This document shows, piece by piece, positions 4,620 to 57,385 of a stretch of 64,000 nucleotides of DNA. The stretch's first letter is position 1; every line of letters starts with the position of its first letter. Both the position numbers and the translations under genes were made by a program. The notes beneath the pieces were generated by a model, which did no database searches, was not told the DNA's origin, and was given only the letters and a program-made list of their open reading frames with translations. The DNA is from Pachyseris speciosa (lineage: Eukaryota > Cnidaria > Anthozoa > Scleractinia > Pachyseridae), in assembly GCA_016490735.1 (NCBI GenBank), contig JAEMWC010000212.1, positions 889,501-953,500 on the forward strand, in the 5' to 3' direction.

Positions 4620-4995
4620 CTGGTCACAGGCGATTCTTTTTGATAATCTTCAGCTTCCCCTTATTCACTGCGAGATTCAGGCACAATTTCTTCATCTGCA
4701 TGAGATGTAGCCTCTTTTCTGATCACAGGCACGTAATGTTTTGACAATCGTCAGCTTTAATTCCCATACGTACTGAGAGATTAGTGCACAGCTCCGACAT
4801 TTGCAAACACCTAGCCTCTCCGTCGCCAATTTCTTCTCTAATCACAAGCGCCCTCTTTTGTCAATCGTCCAGCTTCCCATATTCACCGAGAGAGTAATGC
4901 ACAGACGCTAAATGTTCATAGCATTTTGCTTCTCCTTGTCTGTCGCCAATTTATCGTCTGATTACAAGCGCTTTGTTGTAATATTGTTCAGCCTT
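4620..4995 (-). pseudogene. Decayed distal TPR repeats, locus copy 1
   Basis: Downstream of the TAG that ends the TPR exon, the same reading frame goes on encoding recognisable repeats: KAEQYYNKALVI, then GDRQGEAKCYEHLA, then KRALVIREEIGDGEARC. At least two further in-frame stops interrupt them. The ancestral protein therefore had more repeats than the present open frame. The other locus copy shows the same kind of decay at 49080-49450. Confidence 0.65.
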
Positions 4996-5979: not shown

Positions 5980-6077
5980 CTGAAACGACTCTTTTAACAC
6001 AAATAAGAAATAAAGAGAAAATAAGGCGATACCCTAATCCACCCTCTCTATAAATACCTAAAAGCTCATGATCTTAC

Positions 6078-6213
6078 CTTCGGAGATATCTGCTTCATTT
6101 GTGTGTGTGATATCCTCAGTAGCTTGCACTGATTCATGCATTAATGCTAAATCTTTTCTCGTAACATCGTCCACGTTATGCTCGAGATTTGTATCGTTGC
6201 CTTTTGTTTTCAC
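6078..6213 (-). CDS. Hinge exon upstream of TPR exon, copy 1
   Basis: A small open segment sits between an acceptor (cgtttcag|gtg) and a strong donor (gaag|gtaagat). In the best frame it reads TKGNDTNLEHNVDDVTRKD and then EDITHTNEADISE, a hydrophilic linker. Its start resembles the start of the TPR exon (KGNxxNLE), suggesting exon duplication. A diverged counterpart lies at about 50195-50325. By eye the splice phases of this exon and its neighbours do not fit one continuous frame, so a further exon or an alternative start is likely. Confidence 0.4.
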
Positions 6214-7216
6214 CTGAAACGATTCTGTTAAAAAATAGAAAATAATAATAATAACGGATTCAATAATTAACCAAGATTTGCTAACAGGATTTTTAGGGAG
6301 GTGGGACGTTCAACGCGCTTTCCTCCATCGCAATAACTCGTTTCTGTGCTATGCGCACCCACGAGTTAAAAGGGACATTAAGACATTAAGAGGCGATCGG
6401 CTCTCATTGTCCTCGCGCTTGTTCTCGCCTACAAACCCAACAGGGAACTTGATGGGAACAAACTAGCCAACATTCCCCTAAATTCTTTGTATGTAGGCCA
6501 GTTGAAGTGGGAATTTCGCAACTGTTGGCTGGGGGAAGAGTTGTCCCCTTTCCCAATGCAAATTACGCCTGGAAACCACTAGAAAAGAGGATTTACCACC
6601 AGTAGAGGTTTATAAAATTCCTGGACCTAACATCTAAGCTAAACGAAGGGAACACTTAGATGAGATCGGGAATTGAATGTAGCTGACAGGGTGTTAATTT
6701 TCGAACTGAGCAAAAACCTACACCTCAATATGATGAAAGGTGTTTGTCATCAGGGTTTCAAATGATAGTTGAGTTAATCGTTTGTTTCACGGTTGAGTCA
6801 CATGGATGTGGATCTCGACTGATGGCTGTGGATCAATATAAGTAGCACTGTGGTTGGTGGTGATTGGTGCGTTTCCATCCACGCTTAACGCTCTGGCTGT
6901 TCTTGATTACAGGATTTCAATCGTCGTCGTTCACTGAGACTAGAAATCGTTTCCTCACTTTGGTACCGATCGGCTGTGTTGTTTGATCCTGGGTATCCAC
7001 GCTTTAGGAATTTCAACAACGGTCAACAACATCGTCTGATAAAGAACAGCAGTGTAGCGGATGAAACGTCCCGATCCACCTGTGTGTGACTCACTCGTGA
7101 GACAAACGATTAGCTCAGCTGTCAACATAGAACTCATTTCTTGAAAGGTAATAAGAAAAATAAAATAAAGAGATTGAATGAAACATATAGGTAGATAAGT
7201 ACGCACTAAATTTTAC
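6214..7216. other. Intron-like region of locus copy 1
   Basis: No clear exon. A minus-strand open frame at 6955-7206 is not recognisable as a domain. Much of the region shows no similarity to the corresponding, much longer interval of locus copy 2. Confidence 0.4.
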
Positions 7217-7751
7217 CTTGTGTATCCAAGAAGTACTTGCGACAAGCTAAATACTCCTCCTCTAGGATGGTTGTTGTCATTTTCACTTCCAGGAGACCAA
7301 ACTCCTTCAGAACGTCCTCTGTCACCAGCAGCTTTTGAACCATTTCGTTAAGGTGCCCTGTACGATAGTCTTCCCATAGTTCGTCAAGGATTGGCAGCGA
7401 GCTACATTCTACTGTAAGAATCAAGCTCCCTGTCTTTTTATCCACAACCAGCACATTCTTGACCTCTTTCATATAGGTTAGAAAATTACTGAGGGCCTCG
7501 TAAGTACGTGGCGCAGTGTCAATGTACCAATCGGCAATGCGGTTTAAGACTCGCTGTGTGGTTTCGTCAGCATTATGTATGGTTCTCAGAGTTGCTGTCA
7601 ATCCATCATGTTGTTGCGGCTGAATGGATGTTATTTGTGATGTTGTCGGTCGACACTGGGGCAATACCTGGGGTGTCTGCGATGTGTCTACCACATTAAG
7701 AGCTTCGCCATGAATTACAGGTTGTGGTACGATCTCACAGTCAAGCCGCAT
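7217..7751 (-). CDS. TRADD-N-like domain exon, copy 1
   Basis: This exon starts with an ATG and runs about 178 residues to a donor (acaag|gtaaaa). Residues 1-60 are low-complexity and polar (TSQITSIQPQQHDGL). Residues 65-178 form a compact domain with VLNRIADWYIDTAPRTYEAL, LILTVECSSLPILDELWEDY, then LNEMVQKLLVTEDVLKEFGL and TTTILEEEYLACRKYFL. I match this to the TRADD-N-type adaptor domain that cnidarians place in front of TPR, death-domain or NTPase modules in apoptosis/immunity proteins; this is family recall, not a search. A second copy at 55884-56421 keeps the domain and differs mainly in the linker, which argues for real coding sequence. A TPR exon lies downstream on the same strand. Confidence 0.7.
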
Positions 7752-8800
7752 TCGAAGTCGAGCTGTCAGGAATAGGGAGGGGTGGGAATAACCGTTTGTT
7801 AGCTTTCAGAGTACAGAAAAGAAGAACAGCATATTTACAGATCAAAAACGCATTTTCCCGGATGCTTGATATGAACATTCTCCGATATTCTTTCTTCTAA
7901 TTATAATCTTTATGACATTGTTTTGAAAAAAATGTGTTTCTTTTACGCTTGATTCTTCGCAGCCAAAGAAACGGAATTTTACTCCATTTTTGACCTAAGT
8001 TTTAAAAGAATGTTTTAACAATTAAAATAGATGCCAGGGTACGGTTATCCAAAAGCCCTTTTATCACTAACCCACATTTAATAATAACGAACTGCTTTTG
8101 TCCCACGTTACTCTACGAACAGAATAGTTCTCTTTGTCTTTCGAGTTTTCCTCGACTCCAAGAGAAACTTATGCCACGGAAACGATATCACATTCTTGAT
8201 TCGTCAATGAGATAAGCCAGTTTTACTCTGCCTTCAGAGCATGTTTTTCTGATATCGTTCCCTGGGCTTTAAAGCGTCCCCGGTTTGCGGGAAACTTAGA
8301 TGGCAATTTCCAATCACCAACGAAGCCATCTCTTCGAGCAGTAAGACGTCTTATAACAGTTATTCAGCCGGTACCTGTAGGATGCTTTCCGTGCGGAATT
8401 ATGTTCATTATATTCAAGATCATAACATAGCAACACGACTAAGGAGAAATGAAAAACTCGGCACTTTGAATAAACTGCAAGTGTATAATCTGTGTGAATG
8501 TTAAGGCAGACGAAATAAGAAAGAAAAAAATAATTGTTTGATTATTTGGTACAAAAAACATAGTGGTTCTGGGACGAGGCTCAGCTATTTCGATTGAAAG
8601 AAATTTCTTACTGTAGCCAATAACCATAGCAACCGCAGCCATTGCTCGACGAATCTTTAGTGTCGTTTCGTGGCAAAGGATTCTTAATGAGTAAAGTTTA
8701 CAGCAAAGTATTTTGCTTGTTCTGGCGGAGAGAGGCTGTAACGTCTACTAGGTAGGGTTATTAAATTCTTAACTGAAACGCAAAAGACCCGGTTTGCATT
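7752..8800 (-). promoter_or_regulatory. Upstream flank shared with locus copy 2
   Basis: This flank of the TRADD-N exon is recognisably repeated in locus copy 2: cattcgaagtcgagctgtc follows the ATG in both, and gggacgaggct[c/t]agct occurs at 8573 and 57359. The part at 8612-8730 (gtagccaataaccatagcaac, gtggcaaagg) reappears at 62478-62570. The duplication thus included the upstream region and probably the promoter. No TATA box or initiator can be fixed by eye. Confidence 0.5.
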
Positions 8801-10264: not shown

Positions 10265-11577
10265 GAAAATGGGGAAGTGGGTGACAAAGTGCTCAACTGT
10301 AGCAACTTTGTTGGAAGCGACAGATTCTTGGGAATATAATATTGATAACGGGAAAATCAATGGAGTCATTTTTCTAGATTTGAAAAAAGCTTTTGACACT
10401 GTTGATTATCACATCCTTCTATCGAAACTAAACTATTATGGTATACACGGCAAATCTTTCAAATGGTTTCAGTCATATTTAGAAACCACACACAAAAATG
10501 CTCTGTGAACGGGTCGCTATCCAATAGTTGCTCATTGACATGCGCGGTGTCCCTCAAGTGACCATCCTCAGTCCATTATTGTTTAAAATTATTATATATC
10601 AACGATCTTCCAAATTGCTTATCAAAAACCGAGAATGTACGCTGACGACACGCACCTCACATATGCGGGCAGCAATCTTGAGAATGTTCAGTTTTGTCTA
10701 AATGAAGACGTTTTCAACTGGCTGCAAGGGAACAAACTCACATTGAACATGACCAAAACCGAATTCATGCTAATAGGGTCGAGGCAGAGACTGAATACTC
10801 TCACAGCTTTACCAACAATTAGAATGAACAATACTCAAGTGAGCCACGTTACAGCTACAAAACCGCTTGGTGTAATAATAGACGATAAACTCGATTGGCA
10901 TAGTCACATCGCAAAATTAACGAAAAAGATCGCCTCTGGTATCGGGGCCCTAAAGCGAATTAGGCACCTGATCCCAGCATCAACCTTACATCTTATTTAC
11001 CAAGCTTTAGTAAAATCTCACTTTGATTACTGTGACATTGTTTGGGGTAACTGTGGGAAAACGCTACGAGACGAACTGCAAAAATTGCAGAATAGAGCAG
11101 CCCGTGTGTTGACATTCTCTAACTATGATGCTGAGTCAACTGAGCTACTCTAGTTTTTAGGGTGGAAAAATCTTGCACGCCAGCAGGAAATTCATAAAGC
11201 CACCATGATGTTAGATGTCTGCACGGGCCAGCTCCAGAGTATCTGTATTCAAAGTTTACGTGGCGTGACTCTGCTTATGACCTCAGGGACTCTGAAAATA
11301 AGCTCAATGTTCCATTACCGCGCACTAATTATTACCGAAAAAGCTTTAGCTACAATGGCACCAAATTATGGAACAGTCTACCATGCGATGTAAGGAACAC
11401 AGAGTCTCTGGGGGTATTTAAACGTAAGATCAATGACATTTTTTAAGTCTACGCACGGCATTCACGGAAAACAGCTTTTAGTTTGAATTTTAAATATTTT
11501 AGTGTATGTGATATGTATTTTTATGGGCTGATGAATTGATCGTGTTTAAATAAAGATTATCGTATCGTATCGTAAGA
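10265..11577 (+). mobile_element. 5'-truncated LINE with reverse transcriptase
   Basis: The plus strand encodes the core and C-terminus of a LINE reverse transcriptase. In order: VIFLDLKKAFDTVDYHILLS (fingers/palm), FKWFQSYLE, a frameshifted GVPQ block, MYADDTHLTYAG with the catalytic YADD, KPLGVIIDDKLDWHSHI, and KSHFDYCDIVWGNCGKTL. A frameshift or stop at 10500-10640 and another near 11150 kill it. The tail encodes SYNGTKLWNSLPCDVRN, and the element ends with an AATAAA and a (TATCG)n run at 11560-11575, typical of L2/CR1-like LINE 3' ends. No endonuclease domain remains. Confidence 0.85.
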
Positions 11578-12497: not shown

Positions 12498-13733
12498 TTA
12501 AGCCTTACCTTTCCGAGAGCTCTCCGCTTCAATGGACCGCTTCATACTCTTGAAGTCCACCTTGATTTCCTTAACGTCAGATCCGACATCAGCTAGCTCC
12601 GTTTTCACATGTTTTACTCGTGATCCGACACCTGTTAGAGCTGATTTTACTTCAGATCCGACATCTTTTACGGCGGTTTTTACGTTTTCTACTCCTGCCT
12701 TGACATTCTCCAGGCCTCTTCTCACATCTTTTACTTCTATTCCGACATCTGTTAGAGCTGAGTTTATTTCAGATCCGACATCTTTGAAAGCGGTTTTTAT
12801 GTCTTCTATGTTTGAGCGAACGTTTTCTAGGCCTGTTTTCACAGCTTTCACTTCTGACCCGACATCTGTTAGAGCGCTTTTTACCTCAAATTTGACATCT
12901 TTTAGGGTGGTTTTTACGTCGTCTACGTCTGAACCGACGTTTTTTATGCCTTTTTGCACACCTTTTACCTTAGATACGACATGTCCTATGTCTGACCTGA
13001 GATTTCCCACCCCTGCTTTTACATCTGATGAAACATCTTTCACTCCCAACTCAATTTCGTCAAGATGATCTTTGATTTGCTTAAATTTAATCGCAGCATC
13101 TTTCTCTCTCTTCAGCTCGTCCTCCAGTTTTGCAACCCTACCAGTGGGAAAGTCGTCATCTGCCAGGTTTCCTATGTCATCAATATTAGTTTTGTCTTGA
13201 CCAAGAGCATCAAAAGCATCTTTCGCCAGCAAAAGGTATTGTTCGAAGGTTGTCTTGTCAAATGTTCTCGTACTGCACTGGTGGCATAGAGTGTTTCGTA
13301 GCAAGCGAAGCTGGTCCAACGCCAACGCGAAAGTCTGAGCTTGATCTGCACTGGGGCTTACAACGGAACGATGAAATGCTCCACTTATTAAACCACAAGG
13401 TTTCACATAAAGCTTGTCCAATATGCTCAAATGTCCACTCTTATCTGGTATGGCAAAACTTTGAGCAAAGAGAGTGGCTGACAACAGAGATGTACAGTCC
13501 CAGTCTTTTAAGGGTTTGTTCAGACTTGGTACCTTTTTCACTCCACCCTCCTTAGTTAGGAACCAGTTAAGAACTGCCACAGAATCATCCCACTTCTGAC
13601 AGCCATATCTCGGGACGACTAAGTTGTCCCACATGTATACGAACACTTTGCGTAAGGCGACCGGAAATTCATCAAGTACAATAGCGGAGAACTTGAAAAA
13701 GTTAAGTTGTTCGGAAGAGAATGTTGTCATCAT
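12498..13733 (-). CDS. HEPN (DZIP3-like) domain protein with repetitive coiled coil, 5' exon
   Basis: This 411-residue open frame starts SSEQLNFFKFSAIVLDEFPV and continues with a helical domain I match to the HEPN domain found in DZIP3-like proteins of corals and molluscs. The signature RNTLCH (about residues 155-160) fits the HEPN Rx4H motif; HEPN domains are often RNA-binding or RNA-cleaving modules in immunity proteins. From about residue 205 to the end the sequence is a coiled coil of repeating VGSEVKSALTDVGSEVKAVK-like segments of roughly 33 residues. The last codons run into a good donor (gaaag|gtaagg at about 12506), so more exons should follow on the minus strand. None was found before the LINE at 11.58 kb. 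No stop interrupts the frame. Confidence 0.75.
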   Translation of the reverse strand: MMTTFSSEQLNFFKFSAIVLDEFPVALRKVFVYMWDNLVVPRYGCQKWDDSVAVLNWFLTKEGGVKKVPSLNKPLKDWDCTSLLSATLFAQSFAIPDKSGHLSILDKLYVKPCGLISGAFHRSVVSPSADQAQTFALALDQLRLLRNTLCHQCSTRTFDKTTFEQYLLLAKDAFDALGQDKTNIDDIGNLADDDFPTGRVAKLEDELKREKDAAIKFKQIKDHLDEIELGVKDVSSDVKAGVGNLRSDIGHVVSKVKGVQKGIKNVGSDVDDVKTTLKDVKFEVKSALTDVGSEVKAVKTGLENVRSNIEDIKTAFKDVGSEINSALTDVGIEVKDVRRGLENVKAGVENVKTAVKDVGSEVKSALTGVGSRVKHVKTELADVGSDVKEIKVDFKSMKRSIEAESSRKGKA

Positions 13734-13989
13734 CAGGAAAAGAAAGGTTACTCAGTCAAGCAAATTGTGTGTGTGCACCTGCAAAAAAATGCAAACTTTC
13801 TGTTTGTGGAGGTTGACGCAAATTAAAGGGAAAAAAGACAAGAGAGGTAGCCATTCTCTTAATGATCTCTCTCAGCAAAGCTATGTATGGCAGCTGGCGA
13901 TGACACCCTAAGAAATTAGAATCTGGCATTGGACAAGAATTTACTTGAAGAAAAGAATTATCATCACCTTTGGAAAAAAACTATATCTA

Positions 13990-28751: not shown

Positions 28752-29530
28752 AGATAGATAGATACTTTATTAGCGTGTACATGGTAGCCATTGGCTAAAT
28801 TACGTACAATAACTGTATATGCTAAAGGGAAAAAAAACTTTAAAAAAATGCTAGAGTTACTAGAAATATTCTATAAGATATACAACCTACTATACATTCT
28901 TATTATTGTTAATTAAATTGCACTGAAAGTTAAGAAAACTATTCTTTGTGCGATTAGTTTTATAACTAAGATCAAACACTCGGCTTTGCCTAAAATTGTA
29001 CTTAGGGGTATGTCTTGGGGATAGCAAGTGGTGTAGTTTATGCTCTTCGTCGTCTAAGATTTTACTAAAAAGTGAACTGCATAAAAAACTATGATGATCG
29101 AAAAGTGAATCCATGTCTAAAAACGCTAACGATTCGTTATAACTTAAGTGAGGGCAAATAATTGATAAAGCTCTTTTCTGCACTCGTTCTAAATCATTAA
29201 TGAGGTAATTAGGCAGAGATGAATGAAAAACTGGTACAGCATAGTCACAAACGGATCTAATACAACATGTGTAGAATCTTACTAAGTCCGATGTAGCGAC
29301 CCTAGCACGTTTAAGCTGTCTAAGAAAATAAAGTCGTTTAGACGCTTTCTTGATAGTTTCGTTAATGTGTAAGTTCCAAGAGAGATTGTTTGTAATAGTC
29401 ACTCCAAGTAGTTTGGCATTCTGAACTACTTCAAGTTCTTGGCAATTAATGAATAAAGGTGGTAGATCAGCATTGTTCTTAGAGAATGATATACGAATTT
29501 CCTTACACTTGTCGATGTTCAATTGAAACC
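28752..29530 (-). mobile_element. 5'-truncated LINE, reverse transcriptase C-terminal half
   Basis: The minus strand has a 210-residue frame without stops. It starts MNIDKCKEIRISFSKNNADL, just after the catalytic YADD position, and continues AKLLGVTITNNLSWNLHI, LVRFYTCCIRSVCDYAVPVF and LERVQKRALSIICPHLSY, the thumb and connection of an L2/CR1-like reverse transcriptase. The 3' UTR ends in (GATA)n at 28753-28766. The frame is intact, which suggests a fairly recent insertion, but the catalytic core is missing. Confidence 0.8.
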
Positions 29531-30649
29531 TGTTATCTGCGGACCATCATGATTGAATGACAGGAGAAGGAAACTAAAACAGAAGACAAACGAAATGCAG
29601 CTTAATTGAAGACGGTCTATTCAACATTGTGGTGAGTCACGTAATAGATTTTTAGAATCATTGCGAGCTCTTCTTTCGGATTTCTATTTTTGATAAAATT
29701 AATCATTTCCATTATATCTCAATGTGCCACTTGATTTCATTTCTGAAAAGAACTACAAAGGTGATTCACATTTGCAACTTGGAGAAAGAGATCTTTCAGA
29801 GGACTGATTCGCTACGGCGGTGTCACACATTCAAAATGGCGGATAGTGAAAATTACACTAACATTAACACTAACTTGATTTGGCTCGATTTCCAGCCGTT
29901 TTGTGAGCCGGCGTAAAGGAGGATGATACCGGACTCCCAAAACGGCTGGAAATCCAGCCTATAACTTGATGCGACTGTACACTTGTGGGGTAGGATTGGC
30001 CTGACCGACAACTACAGTAGCAGACTCGTGTCAACAAATTATTGTGTAATCAATACAGGAATTAAAACAAGCGAAAAATGCTAATTATGTCGATAAAATG
30101 AAAGCCCGTACAACTGTAGTTGTAGCCTGTGTACAGACACCCCCTCCCCTGAGGGAAACGTAGAAAAGAATTCACGACCGTCGAAAGCAGCCGCCGTAAT
30201 TATGCGGATATATTTTCTGTTCAAACCGGTTTCTCGGCCGGGAAACCACGCTTTTCCTTAGCCAATCAGAGTTGCTGTTTATTTGAAGAACCAATCAGCA
30301 GACTAGGATAAACACTGTCCCAATTTGATGATTTGGAAATGAATATCTCGGCTCGTGCGACCAGAGGCCCAACTCTCTCGCGTTCTATTTTGGCTTTCGA
30401 GCGATATTTATTTTTTCAACGCGCCTCTAGAGCCAGGGTACCGTCAAGGCAACTGGGAAGACTTTCGATTCAACATTCTTAGAGAAAACTACAACTTAAC
30501 GAAGCATTTACCCTTGTGTTAACGAAAATTTGAACGTCTTGCTCAGGATAGAACTGTGTTCGCGAAGTTTATTTCGTTTCGTGTTGCCACTTTCCTCCAA
30601 TAGCGCCATTCAGATCTCGCGCTGCATAAATAAACCGATCTTTTCAAAC
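29530..30649. other. No gene recognised
   Basis: Apart from the hairpin at 29.9 kb I see no coding or transposon structure. The sequence is AT-rich with scattered short palindromes. Confidence 0.35.
29888..29957. repeat. Hairpin-forming inverted repeat
   Basis: The word gatttccagccgttttg and its complement caaaacggctggaaatc flank a ~35-bp spacer. It could be a tiny MITE or a fold-back transcript element. Confidence 0.6.
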
Positions 30650-31856: not shown

Positions 31857-34334
31857 TAACTCCTCTCCCCTAGTGCAGCTAATTTGACCAGAGTTAGTAG
31901 AGGAGATTTGACACGCTGACAATATTGGGGCGATTTTCAATTCATAATCACCAAGTCTCGGCAGAATTCCCTCAGCGCAACAAAGAACAAAAGGCTTTTG
32001 TTTAGAGTTGTGAAGACAAATTTGACCCACTACAATGGGCCATTTCTTAATGCGGACTATCTAACAATGAGGTCACTGCACGCACTAACTTTATATGGGT
32101 TGATAAAAGGTGAAGCAAAGCTTTCTCCTTTTATGCCATAAAACTATTTTCTTTGTATTCACACTCGCCCACAAAGGCTCCCGTGTAAACCAAAAAAATA
32201 CAAGTGACAAGTGAGTTATTCCATGGTATAAAACGAGAAAACTTTAAGTACCTATTTTGTACTATGCCATAGAAAAATTTACAGGCTCACACTGTCAGTG
32301 CAACATGAGCCCGGTGCAGGACGTAATAGTTGGGTGGAATACTTAATGATTATTTTGCGAAATCGCGCGGGATATGGCATGATGCTTAACCAACGAGGCC
32401 GTAGGCCGAGTTCGCTAAAATCAGGGGTTATTCCGCAAGATTGAACTGGATAATTGTTTAATTATTCAACAAGTTGATTAAAAAAGCCCAATTTACCAAG
32501 TTTACTGCAGAAAAGCTGAAAAGCGCCATGACCACATTTGAAAAAACGTGTTTGAATAATAACGATGAATCATGATATAGCTACTTTCCTGCCTTCTGAT
32601 TGATGGTCCTTACTACAATATAGCGTGCTATAAATCGTGTTGGTACATCTAGAAACGAAAACAAGCAACAAGAACAACAAGCAACAATGACTTCCAACGA
32701 CAAAGAGAAAGTTAGGGGAAACGTTAGGCGGCCACTTGCCTGTTGTAACGTGTTAGTTTTACAGCGCTTTTGCGAGCTCAACTTGTTGTAGGTCCACTGG
32801 GAGTTTTTGTGGCCAGCGATCACCCTGATGGCTTATGCGCGCGTTTACACACCTGCTCTAATTTGTACCTGTTTTCTCTGTTGCGCTATTCTCAGCTTCT
32901 AACGTCCGCAAACAATGGCCACCTAATGAAACACGTGCTCACCAGTCTGAAGAAGCAAAAGCCGACTAAGGGATTACATGTGCTTGTTCAGAGGGTCTTA
33001 GGATCCTCTTTCCATGAAGAGAGATTAACCCGTCTACGAGTTAAGTGAGTCTCTTGAAAAGACCATGATCAGGCTCACAATAAATGGATTAATGATCAAG
33101 CCCGGTTGGGTATCCGCGCAATCTAAAACAATACTAATCCGTCCACTCACCCTACGCCTGTGAAAGCTGTGGTAATCAGAAATAAAAGTATGCACAAAAT
33201 ACACAGTTTAATATGCATGTGTCGCGCCTCTGATACGCCACCAATGGAAATAACAAAAGTCCCTTATTTGTATAGTTTTATTTGTAGATAAGTGTTCTGG
33301 CAGTCCAAAACCAAACAGGTTCGACACAACATCCTTAAATGCTAAAGGTCATATTGGCCTTCACTCGGCCTTCCAAGAGGCAATCCGAAATTGCAATTTG
33401 CTACTTCACTGATTCACCTAAACGGTTGTAATATTATGACAACGTTAGCATAACGAGATCTGAATTCCTTTCCATATTTTATTTTCACTATGGCATCATG
33501 TTGATCATGTACAGATAGTTGCACTGCCTTCTCTAATACATCGCATTTTACATTGCTTGTGTTTTGGATGTCTAGAAAACGATGACCCATAAAAAACAAT
33601 GAATGATTAGTGGCTTTTGATCCTAGGAGCTTGTTTGTGCAGTACAGACAAAGGCCTTTTTTCTTACAAAAGTATCAATAAAGTCAATTATGTTGTTGTT
33701 GCTTGTCTTTCCTCATAGCTCCGCTAGCTTACATTAAATAAAGGTATAAACATTACTGGAATCTCGGTGAAATGTGAGGAGAAAAAATATTCATCAGAGT
33801 AAAACTGTTTGCAAAATATGTCATTTGAAACAGAGACAGTGCTATAAGAAAGAGAGGAACGTTTCTGCGGCCAGTTCTATAGTTGGTTTTCACGTCACGC
33901 AAGTAAACATAAACCGCTTATTATTCAAAAATTAATGTCAAGAAATTTAGATATTGTAGAAAAATAGTAAAGACGACCTGGCAAAGTCTCAGGGGTGTGT
34001 AATACCCCAAACTTGAGTTATTCAGCAAAATGTACCACTTAAAATTACAGAGTTTAGTATGGAGCGGCCAGGGGAACAAACACGCTGCAGGTAACTATTG
34101 AAAGCATCTACAGTTTAGTTTGGCCATGTTAAAACCTTTCTCCCTGTTTAACTCGCAAGCATTCTTATTAACACTTCTCTTAATATACTAGTTGTTCAGA
34201 CCTCTAAAACACAAGGTGAATCGACGTTTTCGTGTACCTGATATGTTTCTCAGCAGCCATGTCAACACTCTGAAAAAAATCTGAAATTCAAACTGCATGC
34301 TTTTTCAAAACGAAGTGCGCTATTTTTGTTTTTA
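31857..34334. other. No gene recognised
   Basis: Plus-strand frame 32770-33048 and minus-strand frame 32581-32823 overlap and are not recognisable. I see no transposon ends. Confidence 0.35.
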
Positions 34335-34647
34335 TGCACATGTCATCGGCTTCCCCGTGGGGTCGACCCCCGGGCTAACCAGGGGGATTGTAAAATCAGT
34401 CAAGCAAACTTGAGGAATTTCCCGGGGGGGTCGAGGAATCTTTCAAGACAAAGTCCCCAGGGTGAGGTGTCTCTCAGCTGAAAATCCTCGTGACATCCTT
34501 TTCAAACCCCCTAATCTTTGATCGTAAAACAATGTCAAGATTTCCCCCAACCTCGGGCAAAGAACCCATCGATCTCCTTGAATTCCCCCACATATCTCCC
34601 TGGTAGACCCAGGGGTTGACCCCACGGGGAAGCCGATGACATGTGCA
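34335..34647. mobile_element. Harbinger-like MITE, copy 1
   Basis: The element is 313 bp with near-perfect terminal inverted repeats. The left end reads tgcacatgtcatcggcttcc, then cgtggggtcgaccc; the right end is the complement, agccgatgacatgtgca. It is flanked by TTA on both sides (34332-34334, 34648-34650). TTA/TWA 3-bp duplications are typical of PIF/Harbinger elements. It has no coding capacity. A second copy interrupts the transposase at 54.5 kb. Confidence 0.85.
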
Positions 34648-34650
34648 TTA

Positions 34651-49079: not shown

Positions 49080-49452
49080 TTACCACGAGATTGAGGCGCA
49101 ATTCCTTGATCCTATGACATGCAGGCGCTTTGTTTTAACATTCTTCAGCATCCTCATATTTTCGAAGACACTGATACACAGCTCCGGCATTTGCATAGCA
49201 TCTAGCCCTTCGGGCGCCAATTTCTTCTCCGATCTCAAGCGCCCTCTTTCGACATTCGTCAAACTTCCCTTATTCACCGAGAGAATACACAGCTGCTAAA
49301 TGGTCATAACATCTTGCCTCTCCTTGTCTGTCGTCAATTTCTTTACTGATCCCAAGCTCTTTCTTTCGACATTCTTTAGCCTTGTCATAATTATTTAACG
49401 CGAGATTGACACAGTTCTTAAACTCTCATAACTTCTAGCCTCTACTCCTCCG
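49080..49452 (-). pseudogene. Decayed distal TPR repeats, locus copy 2
   Basis: In the minus strand, repeat-like segments continue beyond the open frame: KECRKKELGISKEIDDRQGE, ARCYDHLAAVY, then FDECRKRALEIGEEIGARRA and RCYANAGAVYQCLRKYEDAE. Stops and small deletions separate them. Together with copy 1 this shows that both loci have lost their distal repeats. Confidence 0.6.
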
Positions 49453-50095
49453 TTACCAGTTGATCATAAGAGCTTTCTTTTGACATTCTTCAGCAAGAGA
49501 TAGGTACACACTTGCTAAATTTGCATAACATATTGCCTCTTCTTCTCTCTCACCAGTTTCTTTATAGACCTTAAGCGCTTCCCTATAATACTTTTCAGCC
49601 TTCATATATTTAGAGCGAGATTTAGACACAATTCCTAAATTTACATAACATCTTGCCTCTCCTTCTCTGTCGCCAATTTCTTTTCTGATCACAAGCGCTT
49701 TGTTGTAATATACTTCAGCCTTATTATATACAGCGCGAGATAGATACATATTTCCTAAGTTAACATAGCATCTAGCCTCTTCTTCTCTGTCGCCAATTTC
49801 TTTATTTATCATAAGCGCTTTGTTGTAATATTCTTCAGCATTCTCACCGCGCGATTTATACACAGTTCCTAAATTATTAAAACATGCAGCTTCTCCTTCC
49901 CTGTCGCCAATTTCTATATTTATCAGAAGCGCTTTGTTGTAACATTCTTCAGCCTCCGCATATTCAGCGCGAGAGTGATACTCAATTCCTAAATTACAGA
50001 AATATCTAGCCTCTCCTTCTCTGTTTCTAATTTCTTCTTCTTTTTTTTCATCGGGTTTTTCTTCGAGAACTCTTTCATTGCCTTTTTCTTCCTCC
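49453..50095 (-). CDS. TPR-repeat protein, main exon, copy 2
   Basis: About 214 residues. After an acceptor (catttcag|gag) comes a charged start (EEEKGNERVLEEKPDEKKEE), then about five TPR units of 38-40 residues, for example CYVNLGNMYLSRAVYNKAEV and YYNKALVIRKEIGDREGEAR. One unit (SRGENAEEYYNKAL) is shortened. It is clearly paralogous to the exon at 4996-5979 but has fewer intact repeats. The TRADD-N-like exon that should precede it lies 5.8 kb upstream, beyond the inserted transposon. Confidence 0.7.
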
Positions 50096-50194
50096 TGAAA
50101 TGACTCTATGCACAAAAATAAGAAATTAAGATAAATTGAGGCGATGCCCTAATCCACCCTCTTTAATACTTCCCTGCAGAGCTTATGACCTTAC

Positions 50195-50325
50195 CTTCAG
50201 AGATATCCGCTTTCTTTGTGTGTGACATCCTCAGTAGATTGCATTGGTTGAGCCATTAATTCCAACAATTTTCTTCTAACAGCACTCCCTTTATTCTCGA
50301 GATTTGTCTCGTTGCCTTTTCTTCC
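50195..50325 (-). pseudogene. Hinge exon counterpart, copy 2
   Basis: Reads KGNETNLENKGSAVRRKLLE and QSTEDVTHK, then an extra base shifts the frame before the conserved donor (gaag|gtaaggtc). Compared with copy 1 (TKGNDTNLE...TEDITHTNEADISE) this copy is frameshifted, which argues against a functional copy-2 protein through this exon. Confidence 0.45.
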
Positions 50326-50601
50326 CGACCTTGTTTATCAATGCAAAAACGGAGAGGAGGAAGTCCAGTTCAACTGGGATTTTCGCAGCCACTAGTGGGG
50401 AAAGACCTTTTCACTCCAAGACTTTCGTCACCAGACAACTGTTGCCTGGAAATGAAAGTCTTGGAGCGAAAAGGAAACTTATATCCTGCAGAACTGAACC
50501 CAGGGGGTTGGGAGAATGGGACAGCAAGACTTCTTAATCACCAGAGTTGTTCATTTTATCTCCGTCCTGTCCCCTTACCCATTTTAACCACGTCTGGAGA
50601 C

Positions 50602-50607
50602 CACCAG
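50602..50607. other. Target-site duplication CACCAG, left
   Basis: Six bases directly outside the left end of the 5.06-kb transposon, matched exactly at 55672-55677. Confidence 0.8.
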
Positions 50608-50845
50608 TATGGTGGCCGACAACTCCCATTCAAAAATAGGGCATATTTTTTGTTTTTTACCTAAAACATGTGCATAAAAACTTTTTCGTTTAAATCAAAA
50701 CGAAAAGAAAAACGTTTTAATTTCGAAAACAAAATAAAAGTAAAAGTGAAACAAAAGAAAATCATTGTAAAAGCCGAGAGCTGCCATAGTATACCGTCAT
50801 GCTTTGCGTTAACACATGTACGGAAGGGACTGGTGGCTAGCATTT
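50608..50845. repeat. Left terminal inverted repeat
   Basis: Matches the right end in inverted orientation, including tcaaaaatagggca, gcataaaaacttttt, aacgttttaatttcgaaa, caaaagaaaatcattgtaaa, ataccgtcatgctttgcg and ttaacacatgtacggaaggg. Confidence 0.9.
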
Positions 50846-50869
50846 TCTTACCGGACTATCGAATTTAAC

Positions 50870-51570
50870 ATGGGGGATCGAGCTTGGGCAAAGTTTCAAG
50901 CCCAGATGAAACACAAACGTGCACAGAGAAAGTCAAAAGCAGATGCTGGAGGTGCTGGCATAATTCACCAACGTGGTGAATTGACAGTACAGCGCCTAAG
51001 TTCAGAGGTCTCTGGCAAGGCGCAAACGTTTAGCAGAATCGGAGCCAGGGAGTTTGTGCCATTCGCCAAGTATGAGGATTTAAAGCTAGCGAACATTAAA
51101 CTTGTCTGTGAGAAGTACTTCTCATCCACAGTTGCTAAAAGCGTTGTGTGCGATGTTCTCGCAGGTGAGCAAGGGCCGTCTTGTTCCACACTGGAACAAG
51201 TTCCTGACTTGAGACTTACACACATTCGATTCACTTAACGGGAGCTCGAACAAGACCATGTGGAGAAGTCTAATACAGTGTTTCTCACCCCAAACAACCA
51301 GAGGAAGGAAAGAGCATTTTTGAGTGTTCCCATTGCATCAACTTCTTTCGAAAAGGATTCAACAAGTGCTTGGTCACCCAAACGCATCAAGGTTTTCCCA
51401 AAGAGCCTGTCAGTGTCTGATATGATGAAGCTTGGGAAGGTCATAAGGACGAAAGCCACTACATTGATCGAGCTGTGATCCTTTGACTTAGATCCTGTGA
51501 AATGGCCCTTAACAGAAAGTACTGTAGAGTTCAATATTGAAAAGGACTCATTTGGAATAGGCGCCCCCCA
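50870..51570 (+). pseudogene. Alpha-kinase-like protein, 5' exon
   Basis: Starts at the ATG 50870, about 25 bp inside the repeat. Residues 1-120 read MGDRAWAKFQAQMKHKRAQR, FVPFAKYEDLKLANIKLVCE and VVCDVLAGEQGPSCSTLEQV, an N-terminal module I cannot name. Then comes an in-frame TAA (51236), open sequence in the same frame with FLTPNNQRKERAF and LSVSDMMKLGKVI, and an in-frame TGA (51476). After it, VEFNIEKDSFGIGA matches the N-lobe entry of alpha-kinases (residues before the usual GAFRxAY). The continuing single frame across two stops shows a formerly longer exon. Confidence 0.65.
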
Positions 51571-52128
51571 CTACAAACAGCCCACACTTTTGGAATATCA
51601 CTACCTCCTCTGTAAGATTTCTTGTTTTATTTTGAGACAATCACCCTGGGGAGGAGGGAAACTCCCACATATAGGTGATGGGTATGGATTGTGATTGGTT
51701 ATTATGTTAACCAATAGTACCTGTGAAAGGCAAAAATGAAATTACAGGTACACCCAAGTAAGCAAAATGTTACCTTTCAGGATTTCTTTAAAAATGTTCA
51801 GTAATCTTACCTTAACTTTTGTACAAGAGCCCCAACCACACCCACAGGCATTGAAACAAAATTCAGTAATGTGAAGAAAATCTAACCTACAGCCAGGGCC
51901 TGACATACCACAGGAGGCTATGTTTTACTATCACTAAACACTGTATGGGAGCATATTCAGGGTGTCACTTGGTCTTGAAATGTTTCTTGCCCAATAACGT
52001 AAATACATGAAACAAGGCCCAAGATTAGTCATGACTGCAGGTTGAAATCATTCCAACACTGAACTACAGCATATGAACAATTCTACTGATTTAAAGATCT
52101 AAGTATATAATTATTAACTTGCTCACAG

Positions 52129-52722
52129 GGCAACAAGTCAAAATGCAGGTTTTACTGGCTCCACATGGGTTGTGAAGAAATACCTGCCAGAAGCATTGAA
52201 AACAATAGAAGAAACAGGCCAGACAGTGGAGATACATACAAAAAAAGTTGTGAAGATGCACACTCTTGCCAAGAATTTTGCTGATCAGTTAAACACTGAA
52301 TTTACAGAAAAATGATCTTATAGAGTTTGGGCAAGCACTCCAGTATGGCAAGCTGTACTTTGGAAAGGAGCTAGATAATGGTGAATTTGTCACTGTTGAG
52401 GAATACATTGACGGGAACTTTGTAAAATACCTCAACAACAATGGTATGGTGTGTGTCAAAACCAGTGCGCTTTCAGAAAAGGCAGATTTGTCTTGCCCAC
52501 TTCAGTCATGAAGAGTCAAGCCATAAATTAATGGTCTTAGATATCCAGGGCACAGGCCACAAGCTACATGATCCCGAAATAGCTTCTTCAGAATTGCTTG
52601 AAAATGACGAATTCCTGTTTTGCACAGGTAACCTTTCTCAAACAGCCATTGACACTTTCATTGGCTCTCACCACTGTAGTATTTATTGCAAAAACTTACG
52701 TTTGCCAGAATTAAAGCAATAA
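52129..52722 (+). pseudogene. Alpha-kinase catalytic domain, 3' exon
   Basis: After an acceptor (gctcacag|ggc) the exon encodes the catalytic domain of the atypical alpha-kinase family (eEF2K, TRPM7, vwkA, ALPK). Blocks: STWVVKKYLPEALKTIEETG (ATP-site lysine region), VVKMHTLAKNFADQL, KLYFGKELDNGEFVTVEEYI with GNFVKYLNNNG, LAHFSHEESSHKLMVLDIQG, DPEIASSE and the glycine-poor FCTGNLSQTAI, then HHCSIYCKNL, the HxCxxxC zinc/fold motif. DIQG matches the catalytic DxQG. Frameshifts occur at ~52311 and ~52475. The stop is at 52720-52722. Confidence 0.75.
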
Positions 52723-53120
52723 GGTACGGAGTTTATCATTATACCTTTCCTGTCATTTACTATTTTGCATTTTGTGATGAATGGGCTTAAATGTTTCTTA
52801 ATCCCCAGTGCAGTTAATTGAGTACTGTTAGGTAATCTTTTAATTTTGTACATAAGTGATAGACAGTATGGCATCATCGTTTTGAAAGTTTATTGTTAAA
52901 TTATAACTACAGTTGTTGTTGCAGTTCACGAGGTTGGCATACATTTGGTCTAACCCAATGTTTTGGGTTTCAGTTGAAGGAGATAAAGAAATTTTGTTGA
53001 AATTGTTTCATGTTATAGTTATAGTTACAATATGCATTTAAGACACATTTGGTCGAGTTGCATGAATCGTGATAAATTAAAGTGTGGTCACTGAAAGTAA
53101 ACCAATTCAACGTTTACCCT

Positions 53121-53311
53121 TCACTGATCCAATAATTTCTCTTCAAGATAAAGGAATGCCTCTTGGCATTCATTAGGTTGCACGTGGTCAGGATAAGGAA
53201 TGATTTCCTCACACCTTGTTCTAAATGTAGCATCCAAGAAGTCCTCTTCAACTTGCAGAACACCAGAATGCAGTGCAGCCTCTTTAAGTTCTTCTTCTGT
53301 TATGGGCCAAC
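53121..53311 (-). CDS. IS3EU-like transposase, exon 4 (3' end)
   Basis: Follows an acceptor (gttgtag|gtt). Encodes WPITEEELKEAALHSGVLQV and a C-terminal LYLEEKLLDQ before the TGA at 53121-53123. The exon has no stops or shifts. Confidence 0.65.
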
Positions 53312-53553
53312 CTACAACATGTGAAGTGAAAATTGCATTAGTAGGCAATAAAGGAGCAGAAAACCTATAATGGGAGTAAACCACTGCATGAAAAACACCA
53401 TTTAAGTGCACTGAACTGCATTTCAGCTGTGTTAAGCAAAACTAGAGTGACCCCACATGAACCTCGGGCACATGGTGTATACAGTATAGTACATGTGCGT
53501 AAAATGCATCAACTTATATAAATGTGATATAACCATAAAAAAAATACACATAC

Positions 53554-53723
53554 CACAAGCTTCCAGACCATACATGTCTGGAAAGCTGTAGATATGATCT
53601 GGGACTCCATCTTGCAAAGCTGTATCTTTCTGTGCTCTTATTCTGTGGCTGTTCCACACAACTGTCCTGAATACATCAAGTTGTTTCTGTACCACTGGTA
53701 TCATTAGGAAAGCTAATAGCATT
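53554..53723 (-). CDS. IS3EU-like transposase, exon 3
   Basis: Between acceptor tttttag|aat and donor tgtg|gtatgt. Encodes MLLAFLMIPVVQKQLDVFRT, VVWNSHRIRAQKDTALQDGV and PDHIYSFPDMYGLEACG. The phase joins exon 2 cleanly. NSHRIR is a recurring element of this transposase family as I recall it. Confidence 0.7.
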
Positions 53724-54009
53724 CTAAAAATATAACACAAAACCAGGTCATCAAGTTCGTTATTATGACTCGGGCCAAAGGACACAAGTTATGTAAAGGC
53801 ACAAGTACACAGAAATGCATGACTGCTTAGTCTACACATGAATCCATTCACCCAGTCGATTCAGATGGTTGAGGTTCGGGAATGCACAAAATGTTGCGTT
53901 GTTTGCATAATACATGTATTTGGATGTGAACCATAGAGTTCAGCTATAGCTGACACAAAGGAGGGAAGGAGGAGTCCTTATCGTCTACATGTATTTAATA
54001 TATATCAAC

Positions 54010-54122
54010 CTGTCTCTTAATTCACTATGTGGATTGTAATAACCTTGGTCCTTTAACAAATTTAGTTGTTCCTTGAAGTATTTTTCCATTCTTTCATGGA
54101 GTTCCTTCCACCATCTCTCAAT
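54010..54122 (-). CDS. IS3EU-like transposase, exon 2
   Basis: Between acceptor ctttgtag|att and donor gacag|gttgat. Encodes IERWWKELHERMEKYFKEQL and NLLKDQGYYNPHSELRD. The glutamate in IER follows a conserved SNQ and is the likely third catalytic residue of the DDE triad, 39 residues after the second aspartate. Confidence 0.7.
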
Positions 54123-54271
54123 CTACAAAGAAAGTAAAGTTCCAGACGTTTGTCGCATTTCTTTTGTCTCATTAAGGGAATGAACACCAGACAAAGGAAA
54201 TTACAGCCCAAACTAGGTGAAAGTAACTTTTACCAGGAACATATACCGGTACATTGTACCCAGACACTTAC

Positions 54272-54458
54272 TTGATTTGAGCTTGATGGTCCATATATGA
54301 TGGAATAGCAAGGGTAATTTATATCACCATGGTTTCTTCGGAGAAAGGCATGTATTGTTGCCATTGTACCAGTCTCTGTGCCTTTGTCCAACCTTATCAT
54401 GGACGGAATAACTCTGGTCTCGTACAAATATTCCAAGTACCAATGGCCGATGACCTTA
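54272..54458 (-). CDS. IS3EU-like transposase, exon 1 distal part
   Basis: The part of exon 1 beyond the MITE. It encodes KVIGHWYLEYLYETRVIPSM, IRLDKGTETGTMATIHAFLR and INYPCYSIIYGPSSSNQ, then a donor (caa|gtaagtg). LDKGTE carries the second catalytic aspartate of an integrase-type RNase H fold. With the MITE and one TTA removed the frame is continuous with 54789-55360. Confidence 0.75.
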
Positions 54459-54788
54459 TGCACATGTCATCGGCTTCCCCGTGGGGTCGACCCCCGGGCT
54501 AACCAGGGGGATTGTAAAATCAAGCAAGCAAACTTGAGGAATTTCCCCGGGGGATCGGGAATCTCTCAAAACAAAGTCCCCTGGGTGAGTTGTCCTTCAG
54601 TTGAAAATCCTCATGACATCCTTTTCAAACTCGAGAATTTCCCCACCCCCTAATCTTTGATCGTAAAACAATGTCAAGATTTTCCCCTACCCTCGCGCAA
54701 AGAATCCCATCCACCTCCTTGTATTCCCCTACATATCTCCCTGGTAGGCCCGGGGGTCGACCCCACGGGGAAGCCGATGACATGTGCA
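54459..54788. mobile_element. Harbinger-like MITE, copy 2, inside the transposase exon
   Basis: 330 bp, with the same terminal repeats as the 34.3-kb copy (tgcacatgtcatcggcttcc and its complement) and TTA on both sides (54456-54458, 54789-54791). The interior is also shared (ctaatctttgatcgtaaaac, aatgtcaagattt). The insertion separates codons for SNSNP and KVIG, so the target was clearly an intact coding exon. Confidence 0.9.
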
Positions 54789-55360
54789 TTAGGGTTGCTG
54801 TTAGTGACCCAGACGCGTTGCCACAATAGGTTCCTACTAGCATTATCGATGCAACCGTAAGCCGCTAACGGGAAAGGGCTATTTTGATACCCCATTAGTT
54901 TGTCATGCCCATCCAATGAATGAACAAAGTTGGGTCCTTTAGAACTAAAACTGCCTTTAGTTTTGGCTTTCTCCTTGCCAACTGGTCCACGGGCTTCCAG
55001 ACCCTTTGGGTCAAGATCATACATTGCTGCATGAACTAAATCACGTGGAACGTTGAGCTCATGGTCTTGTCGAACTTTGTGATACATTGCTCTATATCCA
55101 AGCAGTTTTCCTGGCCCGTCAAGCCCCTTCTTACCAGCTTCTTTCACTGTGTCCACTGACACATTCTTGTCGTGGTAGTAAATGTCGAAGTAACGGAGGC
55201 GTTTGTCGAGAGTACGAAGGCTCCATGCGTACTGGGCAAAGGCCCTTGTCAAAAAATCTAAAATTTCCTCTCGTTGAAGACCCTGTTTTACGTATTTAAA
55301 CATTTCTTCTTTGAGAAACATGTCGTCCTTCCAACTATCATTGCGAAAGTACGCCGCCAT
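54789..55360 (-). CDS. IS3EU-like DDE transposase, exon 1 proximal part
   Basis: Starts with MAAYFRNDSWKDDMF just inside the right terminal repeat. An N-terminal helical part (LQREEILDFLTRAFAQYAWS, LRTLDKRLRYF) resembles a helix-turn-helix DNA-binding region. GKLLGYRAMYHKVRQDHELN follows, then the catalytic core begins with VHSLDGHDKLMGYQNSPFPL and AAYGCIDNASRNLLWQRVWV. SLDG holds the first catalytic aspartate. The family is the integrase-core type found in multicopy cnidarian and fish transposons. All segments together would give about 409 residues with consistent phases. The only damage is the MITE. Confidence 0.8.
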
Positions 55361-55365
55361 CTTTC

Positions 55366-55671
55366 AAGCAATACTAGCTACCAGTCCCTTCCGTACATGT
55401 GTTAACGCAAAGCATGACGGTATACTACGGCAGCTTTTTTATTTTGAAAATTTCAACGGCAGTTTTCGGCCATGGACTCATTTCTTTTACTTTTACAATG
55501 ATTTTCTTTTGTTTCACTTTTACTTTTATTTTGATTTCGAAATTAAAACGTTTTTCTTTTCATTTCAATTAAAAAAAGTTTTTATGCATATGTTTTTGGT
55601 AAAAAAAAAAAAAAAAAAAAAAAAGAAAAAAAAATTGCCCTATTTTTGAATGGCAACTGTCGGCCACCATA
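55366..55671. repeat. Right terminal inverted repeat
   Basis: Inverted counterpart of 50608-50845, with a poly(A)/(T) run at 55602-55634 and an extra ~50-bp segment at 55440-55490 absent from the left repeat. Confidence 0.9.
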
Positions 55672-55677
55672 CACCAG
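55672..55677. other. Target-site duplication CACCAG, right
   Basis: Exact match to 50602-50607. Confidence 0.8.
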
Positions 55678-55883
55678 AAAAGGGGACGTATTTACTAGGT
55701 GTCTTTATGTTTATGAATTTCTTGATTTGATTTAAAATCTGCGCTAATAGAAGAGAACATTCAGATGTGGGGATTAAGGTATGGTTGACAGGAGCGTTTT
55801 CGATCCGAGAAAATCACTCGTTTTCTAGACTATATACTAAGAATAAAGGAAACGGATTATATATTGGAAGCACGAAAATTTAC

Positions 55884-56421
55884 CTTGTACATGCAAGAAG
55901 TACTTGCGACAAGCTAAATACTCCTCCTCTAGGATGGTTGTTGTCATTTTCACTTCCAGGAGACCAAACTCCCTCAGAACCTCCTCTGTCACCAGCAGCT
56001 TTTGAGCCATTTCGTTAAGGTGTCCGCTACGATAGTCTTCCCATAATTTATCAAGGATTTGCAGCGAGCTGCATTCTACTCTAAGAATCAAACTTCCTGT
56101 CCATTTATCCACAACCAGCACATTCTTGACCTTTTCCATATAAATTAGGAAATCACTGAGGCCCTCGTGAGTACGTGGCGCGGTGTCAATATACCAATCA
56201 GCAATGCGGTTTAAGACTCGCTGTGTGGTTATAACATCATGCTGGTTATGAATGGCTCGCACACTTGCTGTCAATCCATCATGTTGTTGCGGCTGAATGG
56301 ATGTTATTTGAGACGTTGTCGGACACTGGGGCAGTAACTGGGGTACCTGCGATGCTTCTACTGCATTAATAGCTGGTCCATGAGTTTCTTTTTCTGGTAC
56401 GATCTCACAGTCAAGCCGCAT
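55884..56421 (-). CDS. TRADD-N-like domain exon, copy 2
   Basis: 179 residues from ATG to a donor (acaag|gtaaat). Same organisation as the copy at 7217-7751: a polar linker (TSQITSIQPQQHDGL), then VLNRIADWYIDTAPRTHEGL, VLVVDKWTGSLILRVECSSL, QILDKLWEDYRSGHLNEMAQ and VTEEVLREFGLLEVKMTTTI. The domain is intact; differences from copy 1 are mostly conservative or in the linker. Its downstream hinge exon is frameshifted and separated from it by the transposon. Confidence 0.7.
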
Positions 56422-57385
56422 TCGAAGTCGAGCTGTCGGAAAAGGTGTATGACCATTTAAAATTAGCTTTCAGGGTAACACAAGAAGACCATCTTTATAG
56501 GTCAAAAACTCATTTCCCGGACTCCTTGATAGGAACATTCTCCGAGATCTCTTCATTAAATTCAAATCTCTATGGCATTATTTTGAAAAGAAGAAAGATG
56601 ACTTGTTTCTACGGAGCTTGCTTAGCAGCAAAGAAAAAGATTTTAACTCAGTTTTGGACGTAAATTCTTAAAAGAGTAATTCAAAAAGTAGATATCTGAG
56701 CCTCGCTGTCCGAGAGCCACTTAACACTAAATGAACAATTACTAATAACGCGGCTTTCATCCCCCATTACCCAGGGAGCAGAAGGTTATCTTTGTCTTTC
56801 CCGTTGTCCTCTGCTCCAAGAGAAGCCAGTTATGCCACGGAGACGACATCAAAAAAGTTTGAGCATGCGCTCTCATAACCTGAAAATTGTTGGTTCATCA
56901 CGAGATAAGCCAGTTTTGAAACTGGTTTTACTGTGGTATCTGCCTCTCTTCCAGATTTTTCATGCGACCCCGGTTTGCGGCAAAAGCGTTCAACTCATGA
57001 TGGTGACGTTCACTGAATGGCCTGGGCAATCCCCAGTACTTCCGATCGTAAACAGTCAGGAAAGGAAGTCTTTTAGTTACTTGTTATTCAGTAGGATGCT
57101 GTCCCTGGACGATTTATGTTCGGGATATGTAAGCTCATACTAAAGCAACACGCAGACTGCAAGAAATCTGTGTGCATCTCCATTCAGTTATCCAAACAAC
57201 GTAGTTTTCAGCAAACAAACAAAAACAAAAGAAAGCAAAAAAAAAAAAAAGTTTGACTGGTAAAAAACAAATCCGAGCATAGATGATTTTCGGAAGCAAA
57301 GAAAGTGATAGTTTTTGGCTGATTTTTCTGTACAAATTAAACAGTATGTGATTCCTCCGGGACGAGGCTTAGCTTGGAGAGTGCG
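56422..57385 (-). promoter_or_regulatory. Upstream flank of copy 2
   Basis: Alignable in pieces with 7752-8600, for example cattcgaagtcgagctgtc, atgccacgga[a/g]acga and gggacgaggct. Similarity stops near 57385 and resumes at about 62470, so roughly 5 kb of other sequence was inserted into the upstream region of copy 2. Confidence 0.45.

What the first reader, a model, noticed from the sequence alone, without database searches (positions are those of the whole stretch)
50608..55671. A DNA transposon that carries its own alpha-kinase gene
Seen: one element with matching ~240-300-bp inverted ends, exact 6-bp target duplication CACCAG, a five-segment DDE transposase on minus, and alpha-kinase catalytic blocks (KKYLPEA, EEYIDGNFVKYLNNNG, LMVLDIQG, HHCSIYC) on plus. 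The two genes start just inside opposite inverted repeats and converge, so the repeats probably act as two promoters. Established: alpha-kinases (eEF2K, TRPM6/7, ALPK1, vwkA) are not known to me as transposon cargo. Inference: the kinase is a resident gene of this family and could explain multicopy alpha-kinases in cnidarians.
Basis: partly seen in the sequence, partly recalled or inferred. Interest (0 to 1): 0.88.

Follow-up and report, generated by a model that had tools for sequence, protein, structure and literature searches.

The report
Animal transposon with resident alpha-kinase gene
This stretch of an animal genome is a real cut-and-paste jumping gene that carries a protein-kinase gene beside its transposase; the same pairing has already been reported in fungi, and this finding extends it to animals.

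Summary
Window 50608-55671 is one DNA transposon: inverted repeats of 237 and 302 bp, TATGG..CCATA ends, exact 6-bp TSD CACCAG. A tandem relative of the host gene keeps an empty site with a single CACTAG. A five-segment integrase-type transposase (minus) and an alpha-kinase gene (plus; PF02816 above cut-off) converge. This copy is dead: stops and frame breaks in the kinase, a foldback insert in the transposase. Relatives are many: 248 kinase homologues, 120 listed, 103 of those over at least 90% of the query. Named sources are cnidarians, a hemichordate and a sea spider. Six catalytic or metal-binding positions are invariant in 64 of 64 aligned. One relative's first exon continues into similar terminal-repeat sequence, and kinase and transposase hits share three long contig lengths. 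The kinase is thus very probably resident. But alpha-kinases in transposons are not new: PMC12730594 states that fungal TET+ IS3EU families carry transposase and alpha-kinase in opposite orientations. This is a TET-less animal member of that kind. The kinase's role is unknown; control of transposition is my best guess.

The parts
50602..50607 (.). left target-site duplication CACCAG
50608..50844 (+). left terminal inverted repeat, beginning TATGGTGGCC
50870..51611 (+). alpha-kinase gene, exon 1: N-terminal conserved domain and linker; in-frame stops at 51236-51238 and 51476-51478
   Evidence: P0003, P0005, P0098 and P0033 align here at 40-43%, P0023 and P0072 at 69%
51612..52148 (+). probable intron (GTAAGA donor; acceptor at 52128 or 52148, not resolved)
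   Evidence: sequence only
52149..52722 (+). alpha-kinase gene, exon 2: catalytic domain (WVVKKYLP, VTVEEYIDG, LMVLDIQG, GNLSQ, HHCSIYC), with two frame breaks
53121..53312 (-). transposase, last segment
53510..53725 (-). transposase, fourth segment (WNSHRIR)
   Evidence: (PF24764 E 0.0085, below cut-off)
54003..54143 (-). transposase, third segment with the presumed catalytic E (IERWW)
54260..54457 (-). transposase, second segment with a presumed catalytic D (RLDKGTETG)
54454..54793 (.). foldback (MITE-like) insert with 59-bp arms that interrupts the transposase gene
54773..55360 (-). transposase, first segment with start codon and a presumed catalytic D (SLDGHDKL)
55370..55671 (-). right terminal inverted repeat
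55672..55677 (.). right target-site duplication CACCAG
6542..6714 (.). paralogous empty site (single CACTAG) in the tandem relative of the host gene

Best explanation
It is a decayed copy of a two-gene cut-and-paste DNA transposon of the IS3EU/GingerRoot type in an animal, probably a cnidarian (inferred from its nearest named relatives), sitting between a TPR exon and a TRADD-like exon, apparently in an intron. Shown: the unit's borders, an empty site in a paralogue, an RNase-H-type integrase-like transposase, and an alpha-kinase gene belonging to a large conserved family. Inferred: the transposase alone cuts and joins the TIRs with a 6-bp stagger. Inferred: the kinase is a resident partner gene, read from the opposite end, that uses its conserved N-terminal domain to dock a partner and phosphorylates either the transposase or a host chromatin, repair or silencing factor, so as to license or tune transposition. 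The stated confidence is for the identity and the residence of the kinase; for control of transposition through the transposase it is about 0.4.
Against: No second copy in the window's own genome could be examined: the genome search did not complete (14 tries). No DNA of any relative was obtained, so the converging layout outside this copy is inferred from protein extensions and contig lengths only, and nearness on the shared contigs is not shown. No dN/dS was possible. Of the 14 N-terminal extensions scored against the TIRs, only P0023 is far above its shuffles; five (P0100, P0132, P0133, P0190, P0210) exceed their shuffle maxima slightly, and eight (P0035, P0059, P0072, P0099, P0131, P0169, P0186, P0206) do not. 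The transposase fold matches have low TM-scores (0.27-0.35 by query length in the three best). No evidence on substrate or activity.
Confidence: 0.88

Rival explanations
1. The kinase is a host gene fragment captured by this copy or this subfamily (passenger), with no role in the transposon.
For: This copy of the kinase is broken. Passenger capture is known in Mutator-like and CACTA elements (recalled, not from a call).
Against: Relatives keep the whole gene, including an N-terminal domain not covered by the PDB matches (best stretches start at profile position 199 or later). 248 homologues and invariant catalytic residues in the 64 aligned, shared contig lengths, and the repeat-to-exon-1 junction in P0023. 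A similar two-gene layout is reported in fungi.
Confidence: 0.06
2. The kinase is resident but acts on host defence rather than on transposition itself, for instance phosphorylating an RNA-silencing, chromatin or immune factor, much as fungal relatives carry TET/JBP, which is proposed to escape methylation silencing. (This shares the identity part of the best explanation and differs on the target.)
For: In fungal TET+ IS3EU the alpha-kinase sits beside a TET gene proposed to counter methylation silencing. The conserved N-terminal domain suggests a fixed docking partner.
Against: No direct evidence; one family over this range of animals would need a target conserved across phyla.
Confidence: 0.35
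3. Two unrelated insertions: a kinase-bearing segment nested in an IS3EU element.
For: Nested insertions occur here (foldback insert in the transposase).
Against: No long inner repeat pair brackets the kinase among the repeats listed (20 of 28 direct families and 25 of 27 inverted pairs shown). Its start lies 25 bp inside the left TIR, and P0023 shows a repeat-like sequence before the same exon in another contig.
Confidence: 0.03

Closest known systems
TET+ IS3EU DNA transposons of fungi (seven Pucciniales species, Tuber indicum), PMC12730594
   Same: 6-bp TSD; ends TAYGG..CCRTA in the Pucciniales; transposase and alpha-kinase genes in opposite orientations (abstract, passages, sections 25 and 34 seen)
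   Different: The window element has no room for a TET gene between the two (398 bp), lies in an animal genome, and its kinase could not be compared with the fungal one in sequence
IS3EU/GingerRoot superfamily in general, PMC10045372
   Same: TA..TA ends, TSDs usually 6 bp, DDD/E transposase (passages seen)
   Different: The passages seen do not mention an alpha-kinase; phylogenetic placement with Repbase IS3EU was not run
Alpha-kinases of hosts with solved structures (TRPM7, eEF2K, MHCK A, ALPK1)
   Same: Catalytic fold and motifs
   Different: About 22-26% identical in structure alignment for TRPM7, MHCK A and eEF2K, and 18% for ALPK1; the best-scoring sequence matches do not cover the N-terminal domain
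Alpha-kinase expansion in rust fungi, PMC4469406 Table 3
   Same: Multicopy PF02816: 79 in M. larici-populina, 39 in P. graminis tritici (passages seen)
   Different: The passages seen do not attribute it to transposons; the link through IS3EU is my inference

Membership tests
IS3EU/GingerRoot | TA..TA termini | tested here: met
   TATGG..CCATA, which also fits TAYGG..CCRTA of fungal IS3EU
IS3EU/GingerRoot | 6-bp target-site duplication | tested here: met
   CACCAG twice; single CACTAG in the paralogous empty site
IS3EU/GingerRoot | DDD/E integrase-like transposase | tested here: met
   PF24764 in 40 of 40 aligned relatives (on the window fragment only E 0.0085, below cut-off); D149, D213 and E253 invariant in 40 of 40 (calling them catalytic is inference); best Foldseek matches IstA, TnsB, retroviral integrases
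IS3EU/GingerRoot | transposase groups with IS3EU in a tree | not testable with these tools
   no Repbase IS3EU sequences at hand
fungal TET+ IS3EU | alpha-kinase opposite in orientation to transposase | tested here: met
fungal TET+ IS3EU | TET/JBP gene between them | tested here: not met
   398 bp between the two reading frames' ends; the only ORFs of 60 aa or more overlapping that gap are of 68 and 61 aa. No separate TET profile search was run.
alpha-kinase family (PF02816) | domain match above curated cut-off | tested here: met
   25.3 and 55 bits against 21.3
alpha-kinase family (PF02816) | conserved Lys, Glu, Asp-x-Gln-Gly and zinc His/Cys positions | tested here: met
   64 of 64 aligned relatives for Lys, Glu, His, Asp, Gln, Gly; 59 of 62, 60 of 61 and 58 of 59 for the later His, Cys, Cys, gaps set aside; assignment of roles recalled from TRPM7
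alpha-kinase family (PF02816) | kinase activity | not testable with these tools
   needs an assay

The most novel reading that the evidence does not exclude
An alpha-kinase with its own N-terminal docking domain is the ancestral second gene of IS3EU transposons in both animals and fungi, a transposon-encoded protein kinase that controls transposition or silencing. Multicopy alpha-kinase genes of cnidarians (annotated vwkA-like or TRPM6-like) and the alpha-kinase expansion of rust fungi are then copies of this transposon gene.
Probability: 0.45. Interest if true: 0.75.

Novelty: new member of a known kind. Interest (0 to 1): 0.52.

Why it matters
If the kinase is a core gene of IS3EU, eukaryotic cut-and-paste transposons would include a lineage that carries its own protein kinase in animals as well as fungi, which makes phospho-control of transposition directly testable. 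It also warns that some animal genes annotated as vwkA-, TRPM6-, alpha-protein kinase 2-, eEF2K- or myosin heavy chain kinase-like are transposon genes, and offers one cause for alpha-kinase expansions reported in rusts.

Tried and rejected
Own-genome search for further copies: not completed (14 identical tries). Scans of viral contigs and genome contigs with the kinase and transposase alignments found no relative at their sensitivity, so no DNA context of other copies was gained. A third protein search shifted to longer proteins, meant to reach fungal or host kinases, gave 19 hits, 7 of them already. Three of the 19 bear an organism name, all animals (Exaiptasia, Pycnogonum, Paramuricea); no fungus was named. 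So kinship of the animal and fungal transposon kinases stays untested. Fold search of the kinase model against viral proteins: 0 at E <= 0.001 among 202 at E <= 10. The transposase alignment had no PDB sequence match at E <= 0.1.

Dropped or left out: two shared short contig lengths, 1668 and 1503 bases, because such contigs cannot hold both genes in full. In one search, 117 of 120 rows of each table were entered; the other three of each have no contig length. Alignment A1 used 65 of the 120 kinase hits listed and A3 used 64 (A1 without P0067); A2 and A4 used 40 of the 120 transposase hits. They were chosen by hand as near full length and varied, so the invariance counts hold for those sets only; 128 of 248 kinase hits and 366 of 486 transposase hits were not listed. 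No tree was built; instead pairwise identities were taken. In one search, 10 of the 34 ORFs listed were scanned.

Prior art: ten searches. Only PMC12730594 holds both 'alpha-kinase' and 'IS3EU'. No report of alpha-kinase transposons in animals was seen in the listings, but one search listed 20 of 32 papers and one search listed 20 of 1,668, the library holds open-licence papers only, and Repbase was not available.
Full report
What was checked. The element reads as described. The inverted arms are 50608-50844 and 55370-55671; the flanking hexamers are both CACCAG. Within the arms the ungapped blocks are 87-95% complementary, so the copy is not new, though how much of the difference arose after insertion is not known.

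Independent proof of the borders. The element lies between a TPR-repeat exon (49453-50148, minus) and an exon with a TRADD-like N-terminal domain (55837-56469, minus); that the two belong to one gene is inferred. A tandem relative with the same order lies at about 5.0-7.9 kb: the TPR part is 77% and the TRADD-like part 84% identical. When the flanks are joined with one CACCAG, they align through the junction to the relative at 6542-6714, where a single CACTAG stands (score 65; maximum 30 in 300 single-base shuffles; BLAST E 5e-6 over 6542-6662). The 5,064-bp unit, kinase included, is therefore absent from the paralogous site.

The kinase. Two ORFs pass the PF02816 cut-off. The gene starts at 50870, 25 bp inside the left TIR, and ends at 52722. 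It is broken by stops at 51236-51238 and 51476-51478 and by two frame breaks in the second exon. A read-through finds 248 proteins at E <= 1e-3, of which 120 were listed. By my count 103 of the 120 cover at least 90% of the query, so the unassigned N-terminal half is part of the family. P0023 and P0072 are 71-73% identical over 53% of the query, matching exon 1 only; the other 118 are 36-49% identical. Named sources are cnidarians (Dendronephthya, Paramuricea, Desmophyllum, Actinostola, Actinia, Exaiptasia) and the hemichordate Saccoglossus; a later search added the sea spider Pycnogonum. Named transposase relatives also come from Clytia, Acropora, Porites, the limpet Patella and the tunicate Ciona. 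Several kinase clusters hold over 100 member sequences (132, 103, 145, 107), though members may come from different individuals or assemblies.

Is it resident in the transposon? Besides the borders, three lines bear on this. First, P0023, an ORF from a separate 1,491-bp contig that matches kinase exon 1, begins in sequence that translates like the window's TIR (score 76 against the transposase-side arm, 57 against the kinase-side arm, maximum 37 in 50 shuffles). It does not reach the catalytic domain. Of the 14 proteins with extensions scored there, five more slightly exceed their shuffle maxima (P0100, P0132, P0133, P0190, P0210), and eight do not (P0035, P0059, P0072, P0099, P0131, P0169, P0186, P0206). 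Second, kinase and transposase hits share three long contig lengths exactly: 374143 (Exaiptasia LOC110237033 and LOC110237035), 969663 (unnamed), and 4408652 (Dendronephthya, where the scaffold is so long that nearness is not suggested); 0.0055 coincidences were expected. Third, PMC12730594 states for fungi that all TET+ IS3EU families have a TET/JBP gene between transposase and alpha-kinase genes, which are in opposite orientations (section 25 read).

Novelty. What I did not see in ten full-text searches (some listings capped) is any report of the pairing in animals, or a link between it and cnidarian alpha-kinase genes. PMC4469406 (passages) gives 79 and 39 alpha-kinase genes in two rusts, and PMC5295586 (passage) lists alpha-kinase among its protein families with a significant value; the link to IS3EU is my inference.

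How it probably works. The transposase, read from the right end, should cut the element out and join it at a 6-bp staggered target. The kinase, read from the left end, is likely a regulator, with the N-terminal domain as docking module. Whether it acts on the transposase or on host silencing and repair is open: I put the first at about 0.4 and host-factor targets at about 0.35, the rest unknown. That the repeats serve as promoters is untested.

Limits. 

Noticed in passing
54454-54793 and 34334-34648: A foldback, MITE-like repeat with 55-59-bp arms, 88% identical between two places in the window; one copy interrupts the transposase gene.
   Followed up: partly
4787-7932 and 49122-56600: Tandem relatives with TPR-repeat and TRADD-like exons; one holds the transposon between the exons, the other shows the empty site.
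   Followed up: yes
10587-11153 (+) and 28890-29546 (-): ORFs that look by eye like the ends of non-LTR reverse transcriptases; the first matches RVT_1 weakly (E 0.00066, below cut-off), the second matches ALKBH8_N, a domain I recall as often found on such proteins.
   Followed up: no
12498-13751 (-): A 417-aa ORF with a long repetitive part after a different N-terminal part; 32 Pfam families match, many of them coiled-coil proteins.
   Followed up: no
proteins P0008, P0074, P0007: The Saccoglossus transposon kinase is closer to the Paramuricea one (51%) than the Paramuricea and Dendronephthya ones are to each other (44%), so the kinase history may not follow the hosts.
   Followed up: partly
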